From positions 1 to 31,205 of IMG/VR virus record IMGVR_UViG_3300036770_002879: DNA of 31,205 bases. The stretch is one strand, 5' to 3'. Both the position numbers and the translations under genes were made by a program. Below the pieces are notes generated by a model. The model had not been told where the DNA came from and ran no database searches. It saw only the letters and a program-made list of their open reading frames with translations. Origin of the DNA: a virus. The stretch's first letter is position 1; the number at the start of each line of letters is the position of its first letter. Below, one piece after another: positions 94 through 25,385 of this stretch.

Positions 94-122
94 TTGACAA
101 TCAAACCTAAATGGTTTATGAT
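94..122 (+). promoter_or_regulatory. sigma-70-type promoter
   Basis: TTGACA (94-99) and TATGAT (117-122) are separated by exactly 17 bp. The site lies just past tRNA-Leu and upstream of the first HNH gene. The spacer and -35 fall within an inverted repeat (GACAATCAAACC at 96-107 with 113-126), so the promoter is embedded in a hairpin. Confidence 0.65.
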
Positions 123-147
123 TGTCTTATATCAAAAGGTATGATAT

Positions 148-3618: not shown

Positions 3619-3846
3619 ATGGCAAAGTCTAATGTATTTCGATACATTGGTAACTTTCTTCTCCTAGCAGGATACTTTTTTCTGCTCTGGGGAGATATGA
3701 AGATTGGATTATTTGTAAAATGTATAGGAAACATATTTGTTGTTCCTTTTGCAATCAAATATAAGTTTTGGGACATTCTTTTTTTATGTGGGTTTTATGC
3801 CGCGATAGAAGTTCCAAAACTAATTCAATTACTGATTGTTAAATAG
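3619..3846 (+). CDS. small membrane protein
   Basis: The 75-aa product has about two to three hydrophobic segments (residues 7-20, 27-41 and 48-62). ATG 3619 is chosen because GGGAG (3604-3608) gives a Shine-Dalgarno about 10 nt upstream. The open frame extends back to 3553 but would read through hairpin copy 2. The gene is flanked by two hairpins on each side. Function unknown; the proteins of this kind I recall are from cyanophages. Confidence 0.65.
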   Translation: MAKSNVFRYIGNFLLLAGYFFLLWGDMKIGLFVKCIGNIFVVPFAIKYKFWDILFLCGFYAAIEVPKLIQLLIVK

Positions 3847-3849
3847 TTT

Positions 3850-3870
3850 CCAATTTTTCTCAAAAATTGG
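3850..3870 (+). repeat. hairpin family copy 3
   Basis: A 9-bp stem (CCAATTTTT/AAAAATTGG) with 3-nt loop CTC, preceded by AGTTT and followed by TGGTG. It begins 4 nt after the membrane-protein stop codon. A second small stem (GCGGA/TCCGC) follows at about 3875-3898. Confidence 0.6.
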
Positions 3871-3905
3871 TGGTGCGGATGGGGAATTCTTTCTCCGCCT
3901 AGTTT

Positions 3906-3928
3906 CTTGGTTCTAGTCAAAAACCAAG
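3906..3928 (+). repeat. hairpin family copy 4
   Basis: Stem CTTGGTT/AACCAAG with a 9-nt loop, preceded by AGTTT and followed by TGGCG. A further partial match, AGTTTCTTG, lies at about 3942-3950, just before the first glycan gene. Confidence 0.55.
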
Positions 3929-3958
3929 TGGCGAGCATATTAGTTTCTTGAGTATAAG

Positions 3959-4858
3959 ATGCAAAAAGTACATTGTATTGTAATGACGCGCAATGATGAT
4001 TTGATCATTGAGCATTGGATCAAAAAGCACATCAACGTCTTTGATACTATCTCAGTTGTTGATGGATCTGATGGTGACTTTACAGAGAATCTCTGTAAAC
4101 AATACGATATCCTCTATACCAAAGACCCTGCCGATAAGCCGTTTCACGAACAGTATCTTCGTGAGGCGGCTTTTAATAATTTGAAACCACACATTGAACT
4201 TGGGGAGTGGGTAGGATGTTTCATGGCAGACGAGTGGGTATACCATGATCCACGTAAAGTAGTTGAACTTGTGGAACCATGGGCAAATGTGATTTCATGG
4301 AATCAACTTAATGTTCTTCCTCACCCATCGGAAAGAGAAGAATATGATAAAAGTATCAAAGAAAATAATTATAACCCAACTGAAGTATTCAAACATTATT
4401 GGTTCCGAGATAATACCAAGACATGTTTTGAACCAAGAATGTTCAAGTACACTGGCGATGAATATTGGACTCATCAAATTCCTAGTGAAAATCCAGTAGC
4501 AGGAAGAATTGAACCAGTATCACATAATACAAAATCTAATATTATTCCTACATACTTTCACTATAAAGTTTTTGATCTTGATCCTGGTAAGTATAAGAAT
4601 GATGGATTTGCTCACTTTGAAAAGAGTAATCTAAACACTGGTATTGGTTATGGCAAAGGTCAAAGTGTAAGGACCATTGAAAATATTGATGATCTTTTCT
4701 TTGATGAAGACAATATCTATTGTAATATGGGAACAGCAGATGATGGCACTGATTACGTTCATGGATATTGTGCTAGAATTGGTGATAATGGGTTAATTCC
4801 AGAAGGTACAAATTACAACCGATTAGGTAACAGCGAAGACGTGAGATTAATTCTATGA
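3959..4858 (+). CDS. GT2-like glycosyltransferase
   Basis: This 299-aa protein opens with a GT-A type strand ([10 protein letters not shown]). It has a DGSDGDFT loop and a metal/nucleotide site resembling DxD in ADEW (about residues 83-86), as in the Glyco_tranf_2_4 group. It is the first gene of a 17-gene one-strand glycan cluster and couples to gmd by ATGA. The donor and acceptor sugars cannot be told from sequence. No clear promoter was found between the hairpins and this start. Confidence 0.7.
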
Positions 4859-19711: not shown

Positions 19712-19739
19712 AGGGGGGGTTGACAGACCCTCCTTTTTC
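19712..19739 (+). terminator. intrinsic terminator with promoter -35 in its loop
   Basis: A G-rich arm (19713-19720) pairs with ACCCTCC (19727-19733) around the loop TGACAG, followed by T5. It ends the SLH gene transcript. Confidence 0.8.
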
Positions 19740-19748
19740 ATATATAAT
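19720..19748 (+). promoter_or_regulatory. consensus sigma-70 promoter for hli operon
   Basis: TTGACA (19720-19725) and TATAAT (19743-19748) are perfect consensus boxes with exactly 17 bp between. The -35 lies within the preceding terminator hairpin, so the unit both stops and starts transcription. The first gene starts 28 nt after the -10. Confidence 0.9.
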
Positions 19749-19775
19749 TGTGTAACAATTCGTAATAAAACGAAA

Positions 19776-19985
19776 ATGACTGTAACAACTAATGAGCGTG
19801 GTCAACAGAATATGTGGGCAATTGAACCGCCCGTTTATATTTCAGATGAAGACGCTATCAAATATGGGATGAAAACTCATGCAGAACGTGCTGAATCCGC
19901 TAATGGACGCTGGGCTATGGTCGGCATTGTTGCTGGTTTCATTTCTTATGCTTTCACTGGCAAACTCTTCTTCGGTATCTTCTGA
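19776..19985 (+). CDS. hli: high-light-inducible protein (Hli)
   Basis: This 69-aa single-helix chlorophyll-binding protein has the Hli core AE-x2-NGRWAMVGIVAG followed by ITG-like AFTGK. Hli proteins bind chlorophyll near photosystem II and help dissipate excess light. The extra N-terminal 38 residues are hydrophilic. Driven by a consensus promoter; its stop overlaps the next start (TGATG). Confidence 0.92.
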   Translation: MTVTTNERGQQNMWAIEPPVYISDEDAIKYGMKTHAERAESANGRWAMVGIVAGFISYAFTGKLFFGIF

Positions 19986-20071
19986 TGACTGAAATTATTT
20001 GGATAGCAACCACAGTTGCTTTTTTTGTAACTCTGGGTTATGCTGTAGAGAAACTTGCTGAAACTTATTGA
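19985..20071 (+). CDS. 28-aa single-span membrane peptide
   Basis: ATG overlaps the hli stop by 1 nt and its own stop overlaps the next ATG (TGATG). The peptide is one hydrophobic helix (IIWIATTVAFFVTLGYA) with a charged C-terminus, like small photosystem or cytochrome subunits in size. It does not match PetG, PetL, PetN, PsbM or PsbT that I can recall. Its place between hli genes suggests a thylakoid role. Confidence 0.55.
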   Translation: MTEIIWIATTVAFFVTLGYAVEKLAETY

Positions 20072-20232
20072 TGAGTGCTGATATGCTTGGGCAACTAAGT
20101 CTTGCCCTTCAAGAACTTTTAGAAAGTGGTGCTTGGTCTAATGATGATGAACTTAAAATTTGTGTAGCAGGCACTCTTCCAAAAGATAAATTTATTGTAA
20201 TTCAAAACACTACTAAGAGGACAAAACAATGA
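20071..20232 (+). CDS. small hypothetical protein (53 aa)
   Basis: ORF coupled on both sides by overlapping stop/start codons (TGATG, ATGA). It is soluble, with an amphipathic N-terminal helix (MLGQLSLALQELLESG) and a basic C-terminus. No known family. Its position inside the hli operon supports expression. Confidence 0.55.
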   Translation: MSADMLGQLSLALQELLESGAWSNDDELKICVAGTLPKDKFIVIQNTTKRTKQ

Positions 20233-20336
20233 ACGAAAGAGCAGAACGTATTAATGGTTGGGCAGCGATGATTGGTATTATTGCTGCGATGGGAAGCTAT
20301 GCTGTTACAGGACAGATCATTCCTGGTATTTGGTGA
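20229..20336 (+). CDS. hli: minimal high-light-inducible protein (35 aa)
   Basis: The peptide ERAERINGWAAMIGIIAAMG then TGQIIPGIW is the Hli chlorophyll-binding helix with almost nothing else. The conserved E, N, G and the C-terminal TGQ-x2-PG are intact. It is half the length of the first Hli. Last gene of the operon before a terminator/promoter element. Confidence 0.85.
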   Translation: MNERAERINGWAAMIGIIAAMGSYAVTGQIIPGIW

Positions 20337-20363
20337 AGTCTTGAACCAATTTCTAAATTGCCC

Positions 20364-20391
20364 ATCCCCCTCTTGACAGGGGGATTTTTTT
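20364..20391 (+). terminator. intrinsic terminator with promoter -35 in its loop
   Basis: ATCCCCCT (20364-20371) pairs with AGGGGGAT (20378-20385) around loop CTTGAC, followed by a T-run (seven T from 20385). Ends the hli operon. Confidence 0.85.
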
Positions 20392-20406
20392 ATGTTATGA
20401 TAAATA
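20373..20406 (+). promoter_or_regulatory. composite early (sigma-70) and late promoter for psbA
   Basis: TTGACA (20373-20378) and TATGAT (20396-20401) are 17 bp apart; the -35 sits in the terminator loop. The -10 runs directly into the late motif GATAAATA (20399-20406). psbA could thus be transcribed both early and late. Confidence 0.75.
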
Positions 20407-20564
20407 CACATTAAGAAACGTAACAAATCGTAACGTTTCTGATTCCTCTTCCTAACCGAGACCTATGGGGAGGTTAAACACAGTCTCTCATGCCCACACT
20501 GGAGGGTAGTGTGGGGAATACCGTAACATCCAGATACCCCCTGGATCATACCTACCCTTTTCAA
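20402..20564 (+). promoter_or_regulatory. structured psbA 5' leader
   Basis: This roughly 160-nt leader carries two 8-bp hairpins: 20414-20421 with 20433-20440, and 20493-20500 with 20508-20515. A 5-bp stem lies near 20530-20546. An in-frame ATG at 20490 would extend D1 by 25 residues not found in D1 proteins, so it is treated as leader. Likely controls psbA mRNA stability or translation. Confidence 0.5.
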
Positions 20565-21644
20565 ATGACTGCTACTATTGCTCAAAGACAATCTACTAAC
20601 TCCTGGGAACAGTTTTGCCAGTGGGTTACTTCAACGAACAACCGCCTTTATGTTGGTTGGTTCGGAACTCTGATGATTCCTACGCTGCTCGCTGCAACCG
20701 TATGTTTCATCGTCGCCTTCATTGCCGCACCTCCGGTGGACATTGATGGTATTCGTGAACCTGTTTCTGGTTCTCTCATGTACGGAAACAACATCATTTC
20801 TGGTGCTGTTGTTCCTTCATCCAATGCTATTGGACTGCACTTTTATCCCATCTGGGAAGCAAATTCACTAGACGAGTGGCTATATAATGGTGGTCCTTAC
20901 CAGCTGGTAGTATTTCACTTCCTGATTGGTGTCTTCTCTTATATGGGTCGTGAGTGGGAACTTTCTTACCGACTTGGTATGCGTCCTTGGATTTTTGTTG
21001 CCTACAGCGCACCCGTTGCTGCTGCTACTGCAGTGTTCCTCGTCTATCCCTTTGGACAAGGTTCCTTCTCTGATGGTATGCCTCTTGGCATTTCAGGAAC
21101 ATTTAACTACATGCTTGTTTTCCAGGCGGAGCATAATATCCTCATGCACCCCTTCCATATGCTTGGGGTGGCTGGTGTATTTGGTGGTGCTCTTTTCTCT
21201 GCTATGCATGGATCTCTGGTCACTTCTTCGCTCATCCGTGAGACAACTGAAGAAGTAAGTCAGAACTACGGTTACAAGTTTGGTCAAGAAGAAGAGACGT
21301 ATAACATTGTTGCTGCACACGGTTACTTTGGTCGTTTGATCTTCCAATACGCATCGTTCAACAACTCTCGTTCACTTCACTTCTTCCTCGCTGCATGGCC
21401 TGTAGTTGGTATCTGGTTTGCTGCTCTTGGTGTTAGCACCATGGCATTCAACCTCAACGGTTTCAACTTCAACCAGTCGCTGCTTGACAACAACGGTCGT
21501 GTGATCAACACTTGGGCTGATATTCTGAACCGTGCCAATCTTGGTTTTGAGGTAATGCATGAGCGCAATGCCCATAACTTCCCTCTTGACCTTGCTGCTG
21601 CTGATATCACTCCTGTGGCACTAGTAGCACCTGCAATCGGTTGA
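20565..21644 (+). CDS. psbA: photosystem II D1 protein
   Basis: This 359-aa D1 protein keeps photosystem II running during infection by replacing photodamaged host D1. Numbering matches host D1: Y161, D170, E189, H190, H198, H332, E333, D342 and A344 are all present, and the C-terminal 15-residue extension past A344 is kept for processing. Residue 130 is Glu, the high-light type. No intron is present. The first residues MTATIAQRQ fix the start at 20565. Confidence 0.98.
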
Positions 21645-21669
21645 CACTCAAGGTATACCTTGATAAAAT
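21641..21669 (+). promoter_or_regulatory. sigma-70-type promoter with palindromic spacer
   Basis: TTGACA (21641-21646, overlapping the psbA stop) and TAAAAT (21664-21669) are 17 bp apart. The spacer is almost wholly a perfect 16-bp palindrome, TCAAGGTATACCTTGA (21648-21663). The expected start of transcription falls inside the stem of the following terminator. Confidence 0.7.
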
Positions 21670-21670
21670 G

Positions 21671-21692
21671 GGAGGGGAAACCCTCCTTTTTT
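21671..21692 (+). terminator. intrinsic terminator after psbA
   Basis: GGAGGG (21671-21676) pairs with CCCTCC (21681-21686) around a GAAA tetraloop, followed by six T. Confidence 0.9.
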
Positions 21693-21693
21693 A

Positions 21694-21801
21694 ATGATTA
21701 GTTCAGAAACTCCATATAAACTAGCACAGATTATTAGAGACACTTGGCCTCAAATTTATAGACCAAATAAATCAAATAAAAAAGAACCTAAAAAATCTTG
21801 A
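21694..21801 (+). CDS. small basic hypothetical protein (35 aa)
   Basis: This ORF begins right after the psbA terminator and ends in TGA within the next -35 box. The N-terminus is soluble and the C-terminus is very lysine-rich (NKSNKKEPKKS). No Shine-Dalgarno is visible. A promoter whose start lies inside the terminator would supply a short leader. It may be a real tiny gene or chance. Confidence 0.4.
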   Translation: MISSETPYKLAQIIRDTWPQIYRPNKSNKKEPKKS

Positions 21802-21826
21802 CATGGTATTCAATCCGTGCTAACCT
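21798..21826 (+). promoter_or_regulatory. sigma-70-type promoter
   Basis: TTGACA (21798-21803) and TAACCT (21821-21826), spacing 17 bp; the -10 is weak. Located 25 nt before the secreted protein at 21851. Confidence 0.5.
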
Positions 21827-21850
21827 GCAAATGTTCATACTGATTTTGTT

Positions 21851-22108
21851 ATGATTGTCCGTTTACTTATTACTTTTGGATCTTTAGTTGCTATGAATGC
21901 TCCAGCATTTGCATATGGCAACTACCCTCAAGCACAATATAATCCTCCTTCTTTTTATTCTCCTGGAGGAAATTCATCTCCTGTTGTTGTTCCACCAACG
22001 GTAATCATGCCTGGTGATGTGAACTCATCAAAAAAGAGTTGCAAGGAAAACGTAATTGATTTCTTTTTGATTTCTTGGAGAACAAGAACGGGAGATTGTA
22101 CAGAATAA
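21851..22108 (+). CDS. secreted proline-rich small protein
   Basis: The 85-aa product has a signal peptide (residues 1 to about 22, ending in AFA-Y), then a proline/serine-rich stretch (about 25-55). A C-terminal region with two cysteines (KKSCKEN and GDCTE) could form a disulfide. It is probably exported to the periplasm or outer surface. No family recognised. Confidence 0.7.
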   Translation: MIVRLLITFGSLVAMNAPAFAYGNYPQAQYNPPSFYSPGGNSSPVVVPPTVIMPGDVNSSKKSCKENVIDFFLISWRTRTGDCTE

Positions 22109-22141
22109 TAAAAAATATTAAATAAAAGAAAACTCACAATT

Positions 22142-22384
22142 ATGTCCTTTACTGTTTATTCAAAAGACAATTGTCCTTATTGTCAAAAAATTGAACAACT
22201 TTTACAGTTTGCTGAAGTTCCTTACGTCATTTATAAATTAGACAGAGACTTCACACGTCAGGCATTTTATGATGAGTATGGTGTAGGAGCCACTTTTCCT
22301 CAAATCACTTTTGGAAATACTCATATAGGTGGTTGTTCTGATACAATTAAGTTTCTAAAAGAACAAAAACACTTACCGCAATAA
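22142..22384 (+). CDS. glutaredoxin
   Basis: The 80-aa protein has the active site CPYC (residues 11-14), a cis-proline segment TFPQI and the glutathione-binding GGCSD. It would reduce disulfides, probably of ribonucleotide reductase or ThyX-linked metabolism. The stop overlaps the next ATG by 1 nt (TAATG). Confidence 0.93.
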   Translation: MSFTVYSKDNCPYCQKIEQLLQFAEVPYVIYKLDRDFTRQAFYDEYGVGATFPQITFGNTHIGGCSDTIKFLKEQKHLPQ

Positions 22385-22728
22385 TGGAAGATCTTCTCTA
22401 CGTTGTTGAGACCGCAATTGATTATGCATTTACAAAGGACAGATATGTTCTCAACATGTATGAATATGCCAAGTCATCTAAAATGACAAAGCATCAAGTG
22501 ACACAGTTTATTCAAAGCTCTGTTGCTCTAGAGATTAGCAATTTAGTTGAAGATCTTGATGAGTATCTAAAAGGCGGGGCAGACAATGTTCACAAACAAT
22601 TACGAGAAGCATATGGACACATACCAAAACCACGTGCTCGTAAGATAAGAAACTATTTGTACGGAATATTGGAGGATGCCTGGCGTTATGAGCGAGACAA
22701 GAAACCAGGGAGGAAAAAGAAATCCTGA
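22384..22728 (+). CDS. hypothetical protein
   Basis: This 114-aa, mainly helical protein ends in a basic tail (KKPGRKKKS). It starts on the glutaredoxin stop codon, so the two are co-translated. No motif is recognised. The basic C-terminus suggests nucleic-acid contact. Confidence 0.75.
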   Translation: MEDLLYVVETAIDYAFTKDRYVLNMYEYAKSSKMTKHQVTQFIQSSVALEISNLVEDLDEYLKGGADNVHKQLREAYGHIPKPRARKIRNYLYGILEDAWRYERDKKPGRKKKS

Positions 22729-22734
22729 TCTGGA

Positions 22735-22742
22735 AATAAATA
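22735..22742 (+). promoter_or_regulatory. late-promoter motif AATAAATA
   Basis: NATAAATA motif 14 nt before the start codon chosen for the 46-aa gene at 22757. Confidence 0.45.
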
Positions 22743-22756
22743 AAGGTGTGGAGCTG

Positions 22757-22897
22757 ATGCTCCGAAATAAAAACAAACAGGGGAGGAAACCAAAAACATT
22801 CCAAATTCGTTTTGGTAAGATGGTTTCTCTCCTGAAAAGAGAGATTCACATCTTCTTAGAATTTTCCTTTGACTTAAGGAAACAAAACTCAAACTAG
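22757..22897 (+). CDS. small basic hypothetical protein (46 aa)
   Basis: It starts MLRNKNKQGRKPKTF and is strongly basic, with a hydrophobic/aromatic C-terminal half. The open frame reaches back to 22676 inside the previous gene. ATG 22757 is preferred because a purine-rich GTGTGGAG lies upstream and a late motif precedes it. No family recognised. Confidence 0.55.
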   Translation: MLRNKNKQGRKPKTFQIRFGKMVSLLKREIHIFLEFSFDLRKQNSN

Positions 22898-22907
22898 GAG
22901 TAGGAAG

Positions 22908-23144
22908 ATGTTAGCAGTTACTTTGACAATAGGCACATTAGTTAGTATAATGTTCTTATTTGTCGGTATCGTTATTGGATGGTTGGCAAAAGAGCACGTT
23001 ATCAAAACAACTCCTCATCATCCAGATACACTAAACTTACATCCTGAGTTCCTAGATGAAAATGGGAATGTAATTCCAGACCAAATTTTTGCCTTGAGAT
23101 TTGAAAATGCAGAAGACTACTACGACAGCGAAGACGACGACTAG
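22908..23144 (+). CDS. membrane-anchored acidic protein
   Basis: This 78-aa protein has one N-terminal membrane helix (residues 2-26). A hydrophilic region follows, ending in an acidic tail (EDYYDSEDDD). AGGAG lies upstream at a proper distance. The acidic tail is encoded by the same DNA that encodes the start of the next protein in another frame. Confidence 0.7.
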   Translation: MLAVTLTIGTLVSIMFLFVGIVIGWLAKEHVIKTTPHHPDTLNLHPEFLDENGNVIPDQIFALRFENAEDYYDSEDDD

Positions 23145-23646
23145 ACCAAGGTCAACCAAGACCACAAAACCAAAAGAGGTTGTGGAGGAAGTGACATCTA
23201 CAAATCTTCCTCCCAATCCATTCCAAAGTGAAATTCTAGACTTAGTTTCTAAAGCTAGAACTCGCCAAAAGAAAGTTGAACTTCTGAGGCAGTATAGAAA
23301 CGATGCTCTCGTTTCACTTCTCATTTGGAATTTTGATGAGAGTGTCATCTCTGTGCTCCCTGAAGGAACGGTTCCTTACAAACCAAATGAGGCACCCAAA
23401 GGCACTGAACATACTTCTTTACGCTCTGAACAAAGAAGTTTCTATAACTTCGTGAAGGGTGGTAATGATACTCTGTCTAAAACAAGACGAGAAACTATCT
23501 TTATTCAAATTCTAGAAGGTCTTCATCCAGAAGAGGCAGACCTGCTTGTTCTTGTAAAGGACAAACGTCTTATTGACAAATACAACATCAACCGCAGTCT
23601 GATTGAGGAGGCATATCCTGACATCAAATGGGGTGGTAGATCTTGA
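23107..23646 (+). CDS. conserved T4-like cyanophage protein (possibly DUF6433)
   Basis: This 179-aa protein has a threonine/lysine-rich N-terminal tail (about 25 residues) followed by a compact helical domain (SEILDLVSKARTRQKKVELL, then IWNFDESVISVLPEG and RRETIFIQILEGLHPEEADLL). I recall the domain as widely shared among marine T4-like phages; the DUF number is from memory. Function unknown. ATG 23107 is used instead of TTG 23101. Overlaps the previous gene by 38 nt. Confidence 0.75.
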   Translation: MQKTTTTAKTTTRPRSTKTTKPKEVVEEVTSTNLPPNPFQSEILDLVSKARTRQKKVELLRQYRNDALVSLLIWNFDESVISVLPEGTVPYKPNEAPKGTEHTSLRSEQRSFYNFVKGGNDTLSKTRRETIFIQILEGLHPEEADLLVLVKDKRLIDKYNINRSLIEEAYPDIKWGGRS

Positions 23647-23906
23647 GTATCAAAGTCATTCACCAAAATTGCGATCCAGAACTTGCAAATGATAGGTCGT
23701 TACCATATACGGCCTATCTTGTTCAGTATGAAATAGACGGAGCAATTGCATATGACATTGTTATTACAGATAAGAAGGTAGATATATTTGATCACTATTG
23801 GGACCGATATAGAGAAGGTCTCAAGTGGTATAAGCAGACAGAAGGAAGAAAGAATCCCAAACTATGGGGTTATGTACCTCCAGAAAAAAAGAAAGGTAAA
23901 AAGTAA
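23643..23906 (+). CDS. hypothetical protein with TTG start
   Basis: This 87-aa ORF starts at TTG, which overlaps the preceding stop (TTGA). The next start overlaps its TAA. It has mixed beta-rich sequence (AYLVQYEIDG, YDIVITDKK) and a lysine-rich tail. No family recognised. Confidence 0.65.
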   Translation: MSIKVIHQNCDPELANDRSLPYTAYLVQYEIDGAIAYDIVITDKKVDIFDHYWDRYREGLKWYKQTEGRKNPKLWGYVPPEKKKGKK

Positions 23907-24085
23907 TGGCAGGGTTTAGTAGCAAACCAAAGGTAACTTTGGATCTTGATGGTATCAATGATGTTGTAAAAGAGTATAAGCAGATTAAAAAATATATGAA
24001 ATCAAATTTGTTTCAGGTAATGACCATGGATGGAACTGAAACGAAAGTAAAAAATCTTCTGAATAAATACGGAGATTCTGAATAA
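23906..24085 (+). CDS. small hypothetical protein (59 aa)
   Basis: It begins MAGFSSKPKV on the TAATG junction with the previous gene and ends TAA at 24083-24085. It is charged and helical, with no signal peptide or membrane segment. Last gene of this operon; no terminator is obvious before the next promoter. Confidence 0.6.
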   Translation: MAGFSSKPKVTLDLDGINDVVKEYKQIKKYMKSNLFQVMTMDGTETKVKNLLNKYGDSE

Positions 24086-24119
24086 AGTATAAAAACTGTA
24101 TCACATTTTACAAACTTAC

Positions 24120-24148
24120 TTGACTAGATAATGCATAAGATCTATAAT
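24120..24148 (+). promoter_or_regulatory. sigma-70 promoter of the riboswitch unit
   Basis: TTGACT (24120-24125) and TATAAT (24143-24148) with exactly 17 bp between. The predicted transcription start (about 24155) falls on the first base of the riboswitch. Confidence 0.85.
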
Positions 24149-24154
24149 GATCTT

Positions 24155-24252
24155 ACGTTCATTCCCAATGGGAACGGAAGTAAGCCGACGCGGAACGGAT
24201 CGTTCATTCGCTATTTGCAAATAGCGAACGCAAACGCCGACTGAAGGAACGC
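24155..24252 (+). promoter_or_regulatory. glutamine riboswitch (glnA/downstream-peptide motif), tandem-like
   Basis: It carries the conserved CGTTCA (24156-24161), a CCC-AAT-GGG hairpin, CGGAAGTAAG (24175-24184) and GAAGGAACGC (24243-24252). P1 pairs CGTTC with GAACG. This is the cyanobacterial/cyanophage downstream-peptide class that binds L-glutamine. CGTTCATTC, GCCGAC and GGAACG each occur twice, 45-54 nt apart, as if two aptamers lie in tandem. A perfect 22-bp palindrome lies at 24207-24228. It precedes a tiny gene, as is typical. Confidence 0.8.
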
Positions 24253-24284
24253 TCTTTAACCTAAACAACTAAGGAGAAAACCTA

Positions 24285-24422
24285 ATGTCACAAGTAGTAT
24301 ATCGTGGTGTCCCATATGACACCGAAGTTCGTCGCCAAGCACAGGCACAACAACAGCAACAACCTCAAGCATACAACGAAACATATCGTGGAGTTAAGTT
24401 TGTAAAGGAGGCAACAAAATGA
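24285..24422 (+). CDS. DUF4278-like small peptide under riboswitch control
   Basis: The 45-aa product has two YRG motifs (VVYRGVPYD and ETYRGVKF), the mark of cyanobacterial DUF4278 proteins, around a glutamine-rich linker with a run of five Q. A Shine-Dalgarno AAGGAG lies at 24271-24276. It is directly downstream of the glutamine riboswitch, the usual setting of such peptides. Role inferred: nitrogen-status response during infection. ATGA overlap with the next ORF. Confidence 0.8.
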   Translation: MSQVVYRGVPYDTEVRRQAQAQQQQQPQAYNETYRGVKFVKEATK

Positions 24423-24505
24423 ATTGGTTGAATGTAATTCGTAAACAAATTCAAAAACAGAAAAGACTCCAAGAAGCACAATACTACATTGCAACTCTTG
24501 GATAA
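24419..24505 (+). CDS. 28-aa basic peptide
   Basis: The ORF starts at ATGA overlapping the DUF4278 stop, with a strong Shine-Dalgarno AAAGGAGG 7 nt upstream. The peptide is an amphipathic, basic helix (NVIRKQIQKQKRLQEA). It is the second product of the riboswitch-controlled unit. Confidence 0.65.
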   Translation: MNWLNVIRKQIQKQKRLQEAQYYIATLG

Positions 24506-24513
24506 TTGAATGA

Positions 24514-24541
24514 AGAGGGTCTTGACAGACCCTCTTTTTTT
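24514..24541 (+). terminator. intrinsic terminator with promoter -35 as its loop
   Basis: AGAGGGTC (24514-24521) and GACCCTCT (24528-24535) form a perfect 8-bp stem whose 6-nt loop is exactly TTGACA. A run of seven T follows. Confidence 0.92.
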
Positions 24542-24550
24542 GTGTAAAAT
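24522..24550 (+). promoter_or_regulatory. sigma-70-type promoter
   Basis: TTGACA (24522-24527) is the terminator loop; TAAAAT (24545-24550) follows after 17 bp. It would drive the small ORF at 24574 and thyX. Confidence 0.8.
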
Positions 24551-24573: not shown

Positions 24574-24741
24574 ATGGATCAAGAAAGATTAAAGCTCATA
24601 GTAAGAAACCTAGAACTACTTGTAGAGTCATTGAAGTCTGAAGTTTATTCGGATGCAAATAGATACATAGAAAATGTACAAAGCAATTTCATCAGCGATT
24701 ATGATGAAGTGTTTGAAGATGATGATGGTTATCCAGATTAA
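24574..24741 (+). CDS. small acidic hypothetical protein (55 aa)
   Basis: ATG 24574 is chosen since the predicted transcript start (about 24557) lies after the upstream TTG. The product is helical with a strongly acidic C-terminus (DYDEVFEDDDGYPD). Its stop overlaps the thyX start (TAATG). No family recognised. Confidence 0.6.
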   Translation: MDQERLKLIVRNLELLVESLKSEVYSDANRYIENVQSNFISDYDEVFEDDDGYPD

Positions 24742-25385
24742 TGACTAAGAAAATGAAAGTAAAACTGATTCAAGCAACACCGAATCCTGAACAGAACATG
24801 GCTTACATTGCACGTGTAAGCAATCCAAAAAATCAAGACAATGAAAGTTTTGAAGGTTTGTTAAAATACTGCATCAAGCATCAGCATTGGTCTGTATTTG
24901 AACAAGCATATATGACGCTACAGATTGAAACCAGTCGTGCAATTGCTGCTCAGATTTTGAGGCATCGTTCTTTCACATTCCAGGAATTTTCGCAACGATA
25001 TGCCGATAGCACTGAACTAGGAAAGATTCCTCTTCCTGAACTTCGTAGACAGGATGTAAAGAATCGTCAGAACAGTATTGATGATCTTCCAAAAGAAATT
25101 GCAGAAGTATTTCGTAAGCGTATCAAACTTCAATTTGATCATGCCGTAGATCTGTATGAAGATATGCTTGAAGCAGGAGTTGCTAAGGAGTGTGCAAGGT
25201 TCGTTCTGCCGCTTGCTACGCCCACTAGAATCTACATGACCGGTTCTTGCAGGTCATGGATCCATTACATCTCTCTACGGTCTTCTAACGGCACACAGAA
25301 GGAGCATATGGAGATTGCAGAAGACTGTAAGAAGGTCTTTGCTGAGCAGTATCCTACGGTCGCTAAAGCATTAGAATGGATATAA
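24741..25385 (+). CDS. thyX: flavin-dependent thymidylate synthase
   Basis: This 214-aa ThyX makes dTMP from dUMP with FAD and methylenetetrahydrofolate. The ThyX motif RHRSFTFQEFSQRYA is present, and the C-terminal ATPTRIYMTGSCRSWIHYISLR segment supplies the dUMP-binding arginine. Start at ATG 24741, coupled to the preceding stop. A second ATG at 24753 is possible. Supplies dTMP for an AT-rich genome. Confidence 0.95.
   Translation: MTKKMKVKLIQATPNPEQNMAYIARVSNPKNQDNESFEGLLKYCIKHQHWSVFEQAYMTLQIETSRAIAAQILRHRSFTFQEFSQRYADSTELGKIPLPELRRQDVKNRQNSIDDLPKEIAEVFRKRIKLQFDHAVDLYEDMLEAGVAKECARFVLPLATPTRIYMTGSCRSWIHYISLRSSNGTQKEHMEIAEDCKKVFAEQYPTVAKALEWI

What the first reader, a model, noticed from the sequence alone, without database searches (positions are those of the whole stretch)
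19712..24550. Terminator-promoter fusions: the -35 TTGACA lies in the loop of an intrinsic terminator
At 19712-19748, 20364-20401 and 24514-24550 a GC-rich stem with a T-run has TTGACA at or in its loop. A TATAAT-like -10 lies exactly 17 bp downstream in each. At 24522 the six loop bases are exactly TTGACA. After psbA (21641-21692) the order is reversed: the promoter start falls inside the terminator stem, so new transcripts cannot form it. At 2794-2828 and 94-122 the same TTGACA-in-hairpin design follows a tRNA. The design stops readthrough and restarts in under 40 bp. Competition between RNA folding and polymerase binding could couple neighbours.
Basis: partly seen in the sequence, partly recalled or inferred. 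Interest (0 to 1): 0.82.

Follow-up and report, generated by a model that had tools for sequence, protein, structure and literature searches.

The report
Promoters built into transcription stop signals
In a virus of cyanobacteria, the start signal for one gene is folded into the stop signal of the gene before it, so one stretch of about 40 letters could end one message and begin the next; the arrangement recurs at the same genes in related viruses and looks like a tighter version of elements already named in T4-like phages.

Summary
The core observation holds. Three intrinsic terminators in this T4-like cyanophage fragment (19712-19748, 20364-20401, 24512-24550) carry TTGACA at the hairpin loop, with a -10 box 17 bp on; 300 dinucleotide shuffles gave none. 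The two tRNA-linked sites lack a T-run and are not the same design.

The architecture recurs. TTGAC lies at the loop of 30 of 276 distinct cyanophage terminators (1.8 expected). In psbA-linked contigs, 17 of 21 such terminators have a -10 box at 17 bp. For one promoter/T-run pattern, 38 of 95 viral and 0 of 72 bacterial sites have the hairpin. All three window elements stand at positions shared with relatives: before hli, before PhotoRC-II/psbA, before a phrog_878 gene beside thyX. Stems there differ in sequence yet match their own partners (phrog_878: 10 of 12 promoters, arm-swapped mean 3.1).

Best reading: a dual-use insulator that ends the upstream transcript and starts the next from a host-type promoter. 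Closest known: PeSLs of T4-like phages; Vibrio phage nt-1 has a form with the -35 in the stem. New variant of a known kind. Competition between RNA folding and polymerase binding is untested. No transcript ends were measured.

The parts
19712..19748 (+). Composite 1: terminator hairpin 19712-19735 and T-run 19734-19738; -35 TTGACA 19720-19725; -10 TATAAT 19743-19748
19776..19985 (+). hli gene (phrog_178), 56 bp after the -35 start of composite 1
20364..20401 (+). Composite 2: hairpin 20364-20385, T-run 20385-20391; -35 TTGACA 20373-20378; -10 TATGAT 20396-20401, running into a late-promoter-like GATAAATA 20399-20406
   Evidence: late motif NATAAATA from PMC2984593
20431..20529 (+). PhotoRC-II leader RNA (RF01717, 70 bits)
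20565..21644 (+). psbA (phrog_182), 192 bp after the -35 start of composite 2
21641..21669 (+). Promoter overlapping the psbA stop codon: TTGACA-17-TAAAAT
21670..21692 (+). Terminator after psbA: hairpin 21670-21687 plus T-run
24512..24550 (+). Composite 3: hairpin 24512-24537 with T-run 24535-24541; -35 TTGACA 24522-24527; -10 TAAAAT 24545-24550
24574..24741 (+). phrog_878 gene (unknown function), 52 bp after the -35 start of composite 3; followed by thyX at 24741-25385

Best explanation
These are composite terminator-promoters, a compact variant of the promoter-terminator elements of T4-like phages. RNA polymerase finishing the upstream gene transcribes both arms, the hairpin folds at the T-run and the transcript ends. 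The same DNA is a sigma-70-type promoter for host polymerase: its -35 lies at the terminator loop and its 17-bp spacer holds the 3' arm and T-run, so the new transcript starts beyond the hairpin and does not carry it. The fit is geometric: the 3' half of a terminator (arm plus T-run) fills a spacer whose sequence the polymerase hardly reads. The result is an insulator of about 40 bp that would give hli, PhotoRC-II/psbA and the phrog_878/thyX block their own transcripts. Shown: the architecture, its enrichment, its place before three genes, and stems that differ between relatives but pair within each. Inferred: that it terminates, that it initiates, that both happen in the same infection, and that insulation is the benefit.
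For: Window: 3 composites, 0 in 300 shuffles. TTGAC in the loop (plus or minus 3 nt) of 30 of 276 distinct terminators from nine cyanophage isolates and 80 psbA loci, 1.8 expected from flanks, behind only the two UUCG 5-mers. Of 21 psbA-locus terminators with TTGAC in the loop, 17 have a -10 box (5 of 6 or better) at 17 bp; no other spacing from 8 to 31 exceeds 4. 19 of 152 terminators score 10 or more of 12 as promoters at the loop, 0-6 when the loop is shifted by 15-120 bp. T-tailed hairpins over 29 of 846 promoter-like TTGAC sites against 3 of 5510 TTGAC sites without a -10. One pattern in two collections: hairpin at 38 of 95 viral and 0 of 72 bacterial sites, all held loci (first counted as 25 of 65 and 0 of 48 on the listed loci). 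Among 80 distinct composites 11 lie 53-56 bp before hli and 8 lie 192-202 bp before psbA; 19 lie 49-60 bp before the phrog_878 gene, whose products are 44-71% identical to the window's in the 18 relatives. Arm swapping on loci not chosen for the motif: phrog_878 10 of 12 against mean 3.1, maximum 7 of 1000 swaps; hli 7 of 19 against 1.8, maximum 5; psbA 4 of 37 against 0.64, reached once in 1000. All seven isolate composites stand at junctions of co-directional genes.
Against: No transcript start or end was measured. Four of nine isolates (Syn9, S-CRM01, P-HM2, P-SSM2) have none at the strict threshold and the others one or two, so the element is dispensable for the group. At hli 14 of 25 promoters lack the hairpin, and 12 of 14 non-composite hli promoters show no other T-tailed hairpin in the 250 bp before them, so insulation there is not needed by all. 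At psbA 8 of 46 promoters are composites, and the psbA arm-swap test is the weakest. Eleven promoters carry a hairpin over the -35 with fewer than 6 T in 9, so hairpin and T-run do not always go together; in two of these (L267, L040) a T-run is there but the count cuts it short. Swapped arms still pair fairly often because many arms are G or C runs.
Confidence: 0.82

Rival explanations
1. Mobile PeSL recombination cassettes: the shared promoter-terminator sequence serves mainly as a point of exchange between otherwise unrelated genes, and its transcriptional role is secondary.
For: PeSLs are reported to mediate gene shuffling in T4-like phages (titles and a citing passage). nt-1 has seven nearly identical copies. 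Composites 1 and 3 of the window share 30 of 43 bases.
Against: Composite 2 shares only 18 and 20 of 43 bases with the others. The same genes lie downstream in relatives and the stems are unlike each other. The S-PM2 study found PeSL-like elements too sparse to explain its acquired genes.
Confidence: 0.1
2. Operator: the inverted repeat around the -35 is a binding site for a dimeric regulator on duplex DNA, and the T-run is incidental.
For: Eleven promoter sites have a hairpin over the -35 without a counted T-run. The post-tRNA repeats at 94-132 and 2794-2815 have none.
Against: Repeat sequences share no consensus. The T-run goes with the promoter: 29 of 40 hairpins over promoter-like TTGAC sites have it, 3 of 33 over TTGAC sites without a -10.
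Confidence: 0.04
3. Terminators only: the hairpins end or protect the upstream mRNA and the promoter-like letters are not used as a promoter.
For: No start sites were measured. Some -10 boxes are weak (TAAAAT here; CATACT, TAAATT and TAAACT in isolates).
Against: -10 boxes pile up at spacing 17. At hli the promoter stands at the same place in 14 relatives without the hairpin, so the promoter is kept on its own account.
Confidence: 0.04

Closest known systems
PeSLs (promoter-early stem-loops), composite promoter-terminator motifs of T4-like phages (Arbiol 2010; Comeau 2014). The papers are not held; known here from titles in reference lists, one citing passage and recall
   Same: A sigma-70-type promoter joined to an intrinsic terminator in T4-like phages. 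Vibrio phage nt-1, recalled as a subject of the 2014 paper, has seven elements whose terminator hairpin includes the -35 and whose -10 follows the T-run; KVP40 has one.
   Different: In nt-1 and KVP40 the -35 is in the 5' arm of the stem and the copies are nearly identical. In RB49, 12 of the 14 promoters with a T-tailed hairpin within 60 bp have it centred 29-46 bp upstream of the -35. Here the -35 is at the loop, the stems are unlike each other, and position and downstream gene are shared with relatives.
Overlapping early and late promoters reported for RB49 and cyanomyoviruses (PMC2984593, passages)
   Same: Composite 2 joins a sigma-70-type -10 to a NATAAATA-like late motif; many other psbA upstreams have the same run of letters.
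   Different: That work describes promoters overlapping promoters, not a terminator.
RNA polymerase recycling and reinitiation after intrinsic termination (PMC6978380, passages; PMC6978322, abstract and outline)
   Same: A terminator with a promoter within reach of the polymerase that remains on the DNA.
   Different: Shown with E. coli polymerase and separate terminator and promoter; nothing here shows it for these elements.

Membership tests
PeSL | strong sigma-70-type early promoter | tested here: met
   TTGACA-17-TATAAT, TATGAT and TAAAAT, 11-12 of 12. Sequence only; activity and timing not measured
PeSL | stem-loop with the form of an intrinsic terminator, joined to the promoter | tested here: met
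   Hairpins of -13.6 to -17.4 kcal/mol with T-runs inside the promoter
PeSL | stem-loop shown to terminate transcription | not testable with these tools
   Needs RNA data
PeSL | carried by a T4-like phage | tested here: met
   Nearest records are cyanophages through psbA; SSB, thymidylate synthase and baseplate families
PeSL | near-identical repeated copies within one genome | tested here: not met
   Window pairs share 30, 20 and 18 of 43 bases; nt-1 copies nearly identical. That this feature is defining is recalled, and the window is only part of a genome
PeSL | mediates gene shuffling by recombination | not tested
   No breakpoint analysis made
Intrinsic terminator | GC-rich hairpin followed by a T-run | tested here: met
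   Three composites and 21670-21692; 94-122 and 2794-2828 have no T-run

The most novel reading that the evidence does not exclude
The overlap is a polymerase hand-over device: polymerase that releases the upstream RNA at the T-run stays on the DNA, as E. coli polymerase does in vitro, and finds itself on the next promoter, so that expression of one phage gene feeds initiation at the next without any read-through RNA.
Probability: 0.1. Interest if true: 0.85.

Novelty: new variant of a known kind. Interest (0 to 1): 0.58.

Why it matters
One 40-bp sequence obeys two sets of rules at once, and the geometry (the 3' half of a terminator fits a 17-bp spacer) predicts where to look elsewhere. It marks likely transcript borders of photosynthesis genes (hli, psbA) in cyanophages, including a likely start for the PhotoRC-II leader. 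Tools that call promoters and terminators separately can miss the joined form. If polymerase is handed from stop to start, these elements would be a natural test bed for recycling after termination.

Tried and rejected
Chance: rejected. The tRNA-linked sites as the same design: rejected for lack of a T-run. The same form in T4 or RB49: 0 of 18 and 0 of 32 strict terminators. Compaction that replaces a separate terminator: not supported at hli, where 12 of 14 non-composite promoters have no other T-tailed hairpin in the 250 bp before them. G001:87875 and G002:91239 looked composite from their spacers, but their upstream sides do not pair; at least three composites remain in each of these 194- and 184-kb IMG/VR records. 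A column-based covariation count was not made, because loop lengths differ and shift the register of the stems; arm swapping was used instead. Pfam scans did not run. Searches used the listed 80; one search repeats the main counts on all that is held (viral 38 of 95, 37 of 93 distinct; bacterial 0 of 72; psbA-type pattern: 32 of 50). One search used the listed loci and not L173-L212 or L555-L593. An eighth isolate row, S-SM2 2140, was dropped because its loop is off the hexamer. The 80 psbA loci are those most like the window's psbA, so 'not chosen for the motif' does not mean unbiased. Named genomes were picked by accessions recalled from memory; OP535465 and NC_031922 were also in the list. 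Phage Phi1 was only pattern-counted.\n\n
Full report
WHAT THE WINDOW IS. The 31,205-bp window is a whole virus record of IMG/VR. A 7-kb query around the finding matched 162 phage records, nearly all named for Synechococcus, Prochlorococcus or cyanophages; none covers 80% of it, and the 40 listed matches are over psbA. The window encodes hli, psbA, a thymidylate synthase, a gp32-type single-strand binding protein and baseplate proteins. It is a fragment of a T4-like cyanophage.\n\nTHE OBSERVATION. Three intrinsic terminators on the + strand have TTGACA at the loop and a -10 box exactly 17 bp on. The hairpins fold at -15.0, -13.6 and -17.4 kcal/mol. My strict scan finds five T-tailed hairpins on the + strand and one on the - strand; three of the six are these. 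None of 300 dinucleotide shuffles held a composite. The window has 12 forward and 0 reverse TTGACA-17-TANNNT sites, and 0 for the pattern read backwards. The two tRNA-linked sites are stable hairpins without a T-run. The promoter followed by a terminator after psbA is as described; 12 of 80 psbA ends examined, the window's included, have a promoter at the stop codon.\n\nIS IT A PATTERN? I took 80 psbA loci from IMG/VR (920 kb), chosen by psbA and not by the motif. Of their 152 strict terminators, 19 have a promoter match of at least 10 of 12 with the -35 at the loop; moving the loop by 15-120 bp gives 0-6, the 6 at -30, close to the place where the promoter at the psbA stop precedes its terminator. 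Of 21 terminators with TTGAC in the loop, 17 have a -10 box at spacing 17 and no other spacing from 8 to 31 exceeds 4. Pooling these loci with nine isolate genomes gives 276 distinct terminators; TTGAC is in or within 3 nt of 30 loops against 1.8 expected from flanking DNA, behind only two UUCG 5-mers. Of sites with spacing 17, 38 of 95 viral and 0 of 72 bacterial have a hairpin over the -35, on all loci held (on the listed loci alone 25 of 65 and 0 of 48). Viral contigs with at least three ORFs like those of my T4-like reference genomes have it at 30 of 50 sites, with one or two 5 of 23, with none 3 of 22.\n\nNAMED PHAGES. Strict composites are in S-PM2 (124310), S-CREM1 (65750, 79007), S-SM2 (46772, 167151), S-RSM4 (51389) and S-CAM9 (141742), and none in Syn9, S-CRM01, P-HM2 or P-SSM2; an eighth row, S-SM2 2140, has its loop off the hexamer and was dropped. 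All seven stand at junctions of co-directional genes: six in gaps, and the S-PM2 one overlapping the end of the upstream gene. Those of S-PM2 and of S-SM2 at 167151 precede an hli gene, as composite 1 does.\n\nPOSITION AND COVARIATION. Among 80 distinct composites from the loci examined, 11 lie 53-56 bp before an hli start, 8 lie 192-202 bp before a psbA start and 61 before neither. Composite 3's place is the best kept: 19 composites, the window's included, lie 49-60 bp before a phrog_878 gene, in a set in which 30 loci match that gene; the products are 44-71% identical to the window's in the 18 relatives. Some of these loci were fetched by the motif, so the fair test uses the others: promoters are chosen by -35, -10 and distance alone, then upstream flanks are swapped among them. 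phrog_878: 10 of 12 have the hairpin against a swapped mean of 3.1 (maximum 7 in 1000). hli: 7 of 19 against 1.8 (maximum 5). psbA: 4 of 37 against 0.64 (maximum 4, once). At hli the promoter stands at nearly the same place (51-57 bp) in 14 relatives that lack the hairpin. This suggests hairpins gained or lost around a fixed promoter; it also shows that they are not indispensable.\n\nHOW IT MOST LIKELY WORKS. The spacer of a sigma-70 promoter is read loosely (established knowledge), and 17 bp hold a terminator's 3' arm plus T-run. Placing the loop at the -35 lets a terminator and a promoter share DNA. Upstream transcripts would end in the spacer; new ones would start beyond the hairpin and not carry it. 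Composite 2 also has a late-promoter-like GATAAATA at its -10 and is followed by the PhotoRC-II leader (RF01717, 20431-20529) and psbA. These steps are inferred from sequence; no RNA was measured. Folding of RNA and binding of polymerase to duplex DNA act on different molecules, so coupling, if any, is more likely through occupancy of shared DNA. E. coli polymerase can remain on DNA after intrinsic termination and restart at nearby promoters (PMC6978380, passages; PMC6978322, abstract and outline). Another paper doubts that T7, T3 and SP6, which have their own polymerases, gain from this (PMC11347151, passages); early genes of cyanomyoviruses are thought to use unmodified host polymerase (PMC2984593, passages). 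That recycling underlies these elements is my boldest reading, at odds of about one in ten.\n\nAGAINST WHAT IS KNOWN. PeSLs are composite promoter-terminator motifs of T4-like phages. The two defining papers are not held; I know them from titles, one citing passage and recall. Tested directly: Vibrio phage nt-1 has seven copies with the -35 in the hairpin's 5' arm and the -10 past the T-run, and KVP40 has one. In RB49, 12 of 14 promoters with a T-tailed hairpin within 60 bp, of 110 promoters, have it 29-46 bp upstream of the -35. T4 has none within 60 bp of its 24 promoters. So the idea is known and the register here is a variant. A cyanophage paper that looked for PeSLs in S-PM2 named other sites, not the one at 124310, and judged them sparse. 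In the listings of my searches of the held library and the passages I read, I saw no account of a -35 in a terminator loop; the PeSL papers themselves may contain one.\n\nVERDICT. A recurrent, conserved, apparently dual-use element: a new variant of a known kind, of solid interest to specialists in phage transcription.

Noticed in passing
window 24120-24420: A promoter (TTGACT-17-TATAAT, 24120-24148) precedes two glutamine-riboswitch-like stretches (RF01739 at 24156-24197 and 24199-24255; 23.7 and 33.8 bits, both under the gathering score of 35) and a short ORF: possibly a tandem glutamine riboswitch in the operon that composite 3 would end.
   Followed up: partly
window 3842-3942: wcaG RNA (RF01761, 94.1 bits) just before the ORFs that start at 3959; the ORF at 4855 matches a nucleotide-sugar epimerase family.
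   Followed up: no
window 20396-20406 and psbA upstreams in other loci: The psbA -10 box runs into a late-promoter-like ATAAATA (TATGATAAATA); the same fusion recurs upstream of psbA in many loci, mostly at about -181 to -202 or -94 to -106.
   Followed up: partly
window 21650-21665: Perfect 16-bp palindrome TCAAGGTATACCTTGA between -35 and -10 of the promoter at the psbA stop; not kept in L017 or L091, which have a promoter at the same place.
   Followed up: partly
window 94-132 and 2794-2828: Stable hairpins overlapping promoters directly after tRNA-Leu and tRNA-Met, without T-runs; perhaps tRNA 3'-end processing or operators.
   Followed up: partly
RB49 NC_005066, e.g. 33307-33335 and 117381-117409, minus strand: Several RB49 promoters have an inverted repeat that fills the spacer between -35 and -10, with no T-run after it in the matched letters: another way of placing a hairpin in a promoter (list cut).
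   Followed up: no
L237 position 2146 and other rows: Strong hairpins over a -35 without a T-run, e.g. a 10-bp stem with 7 G-C pairs in S-PM2: decayed terminators or something else.
   Followed up: no
L167 positions 274 and 2382: Two composites in a 130-kb IMG/VR record with no ORF matching my T4-like references: the form may occur outside T4-like phages.
   Followed up: no
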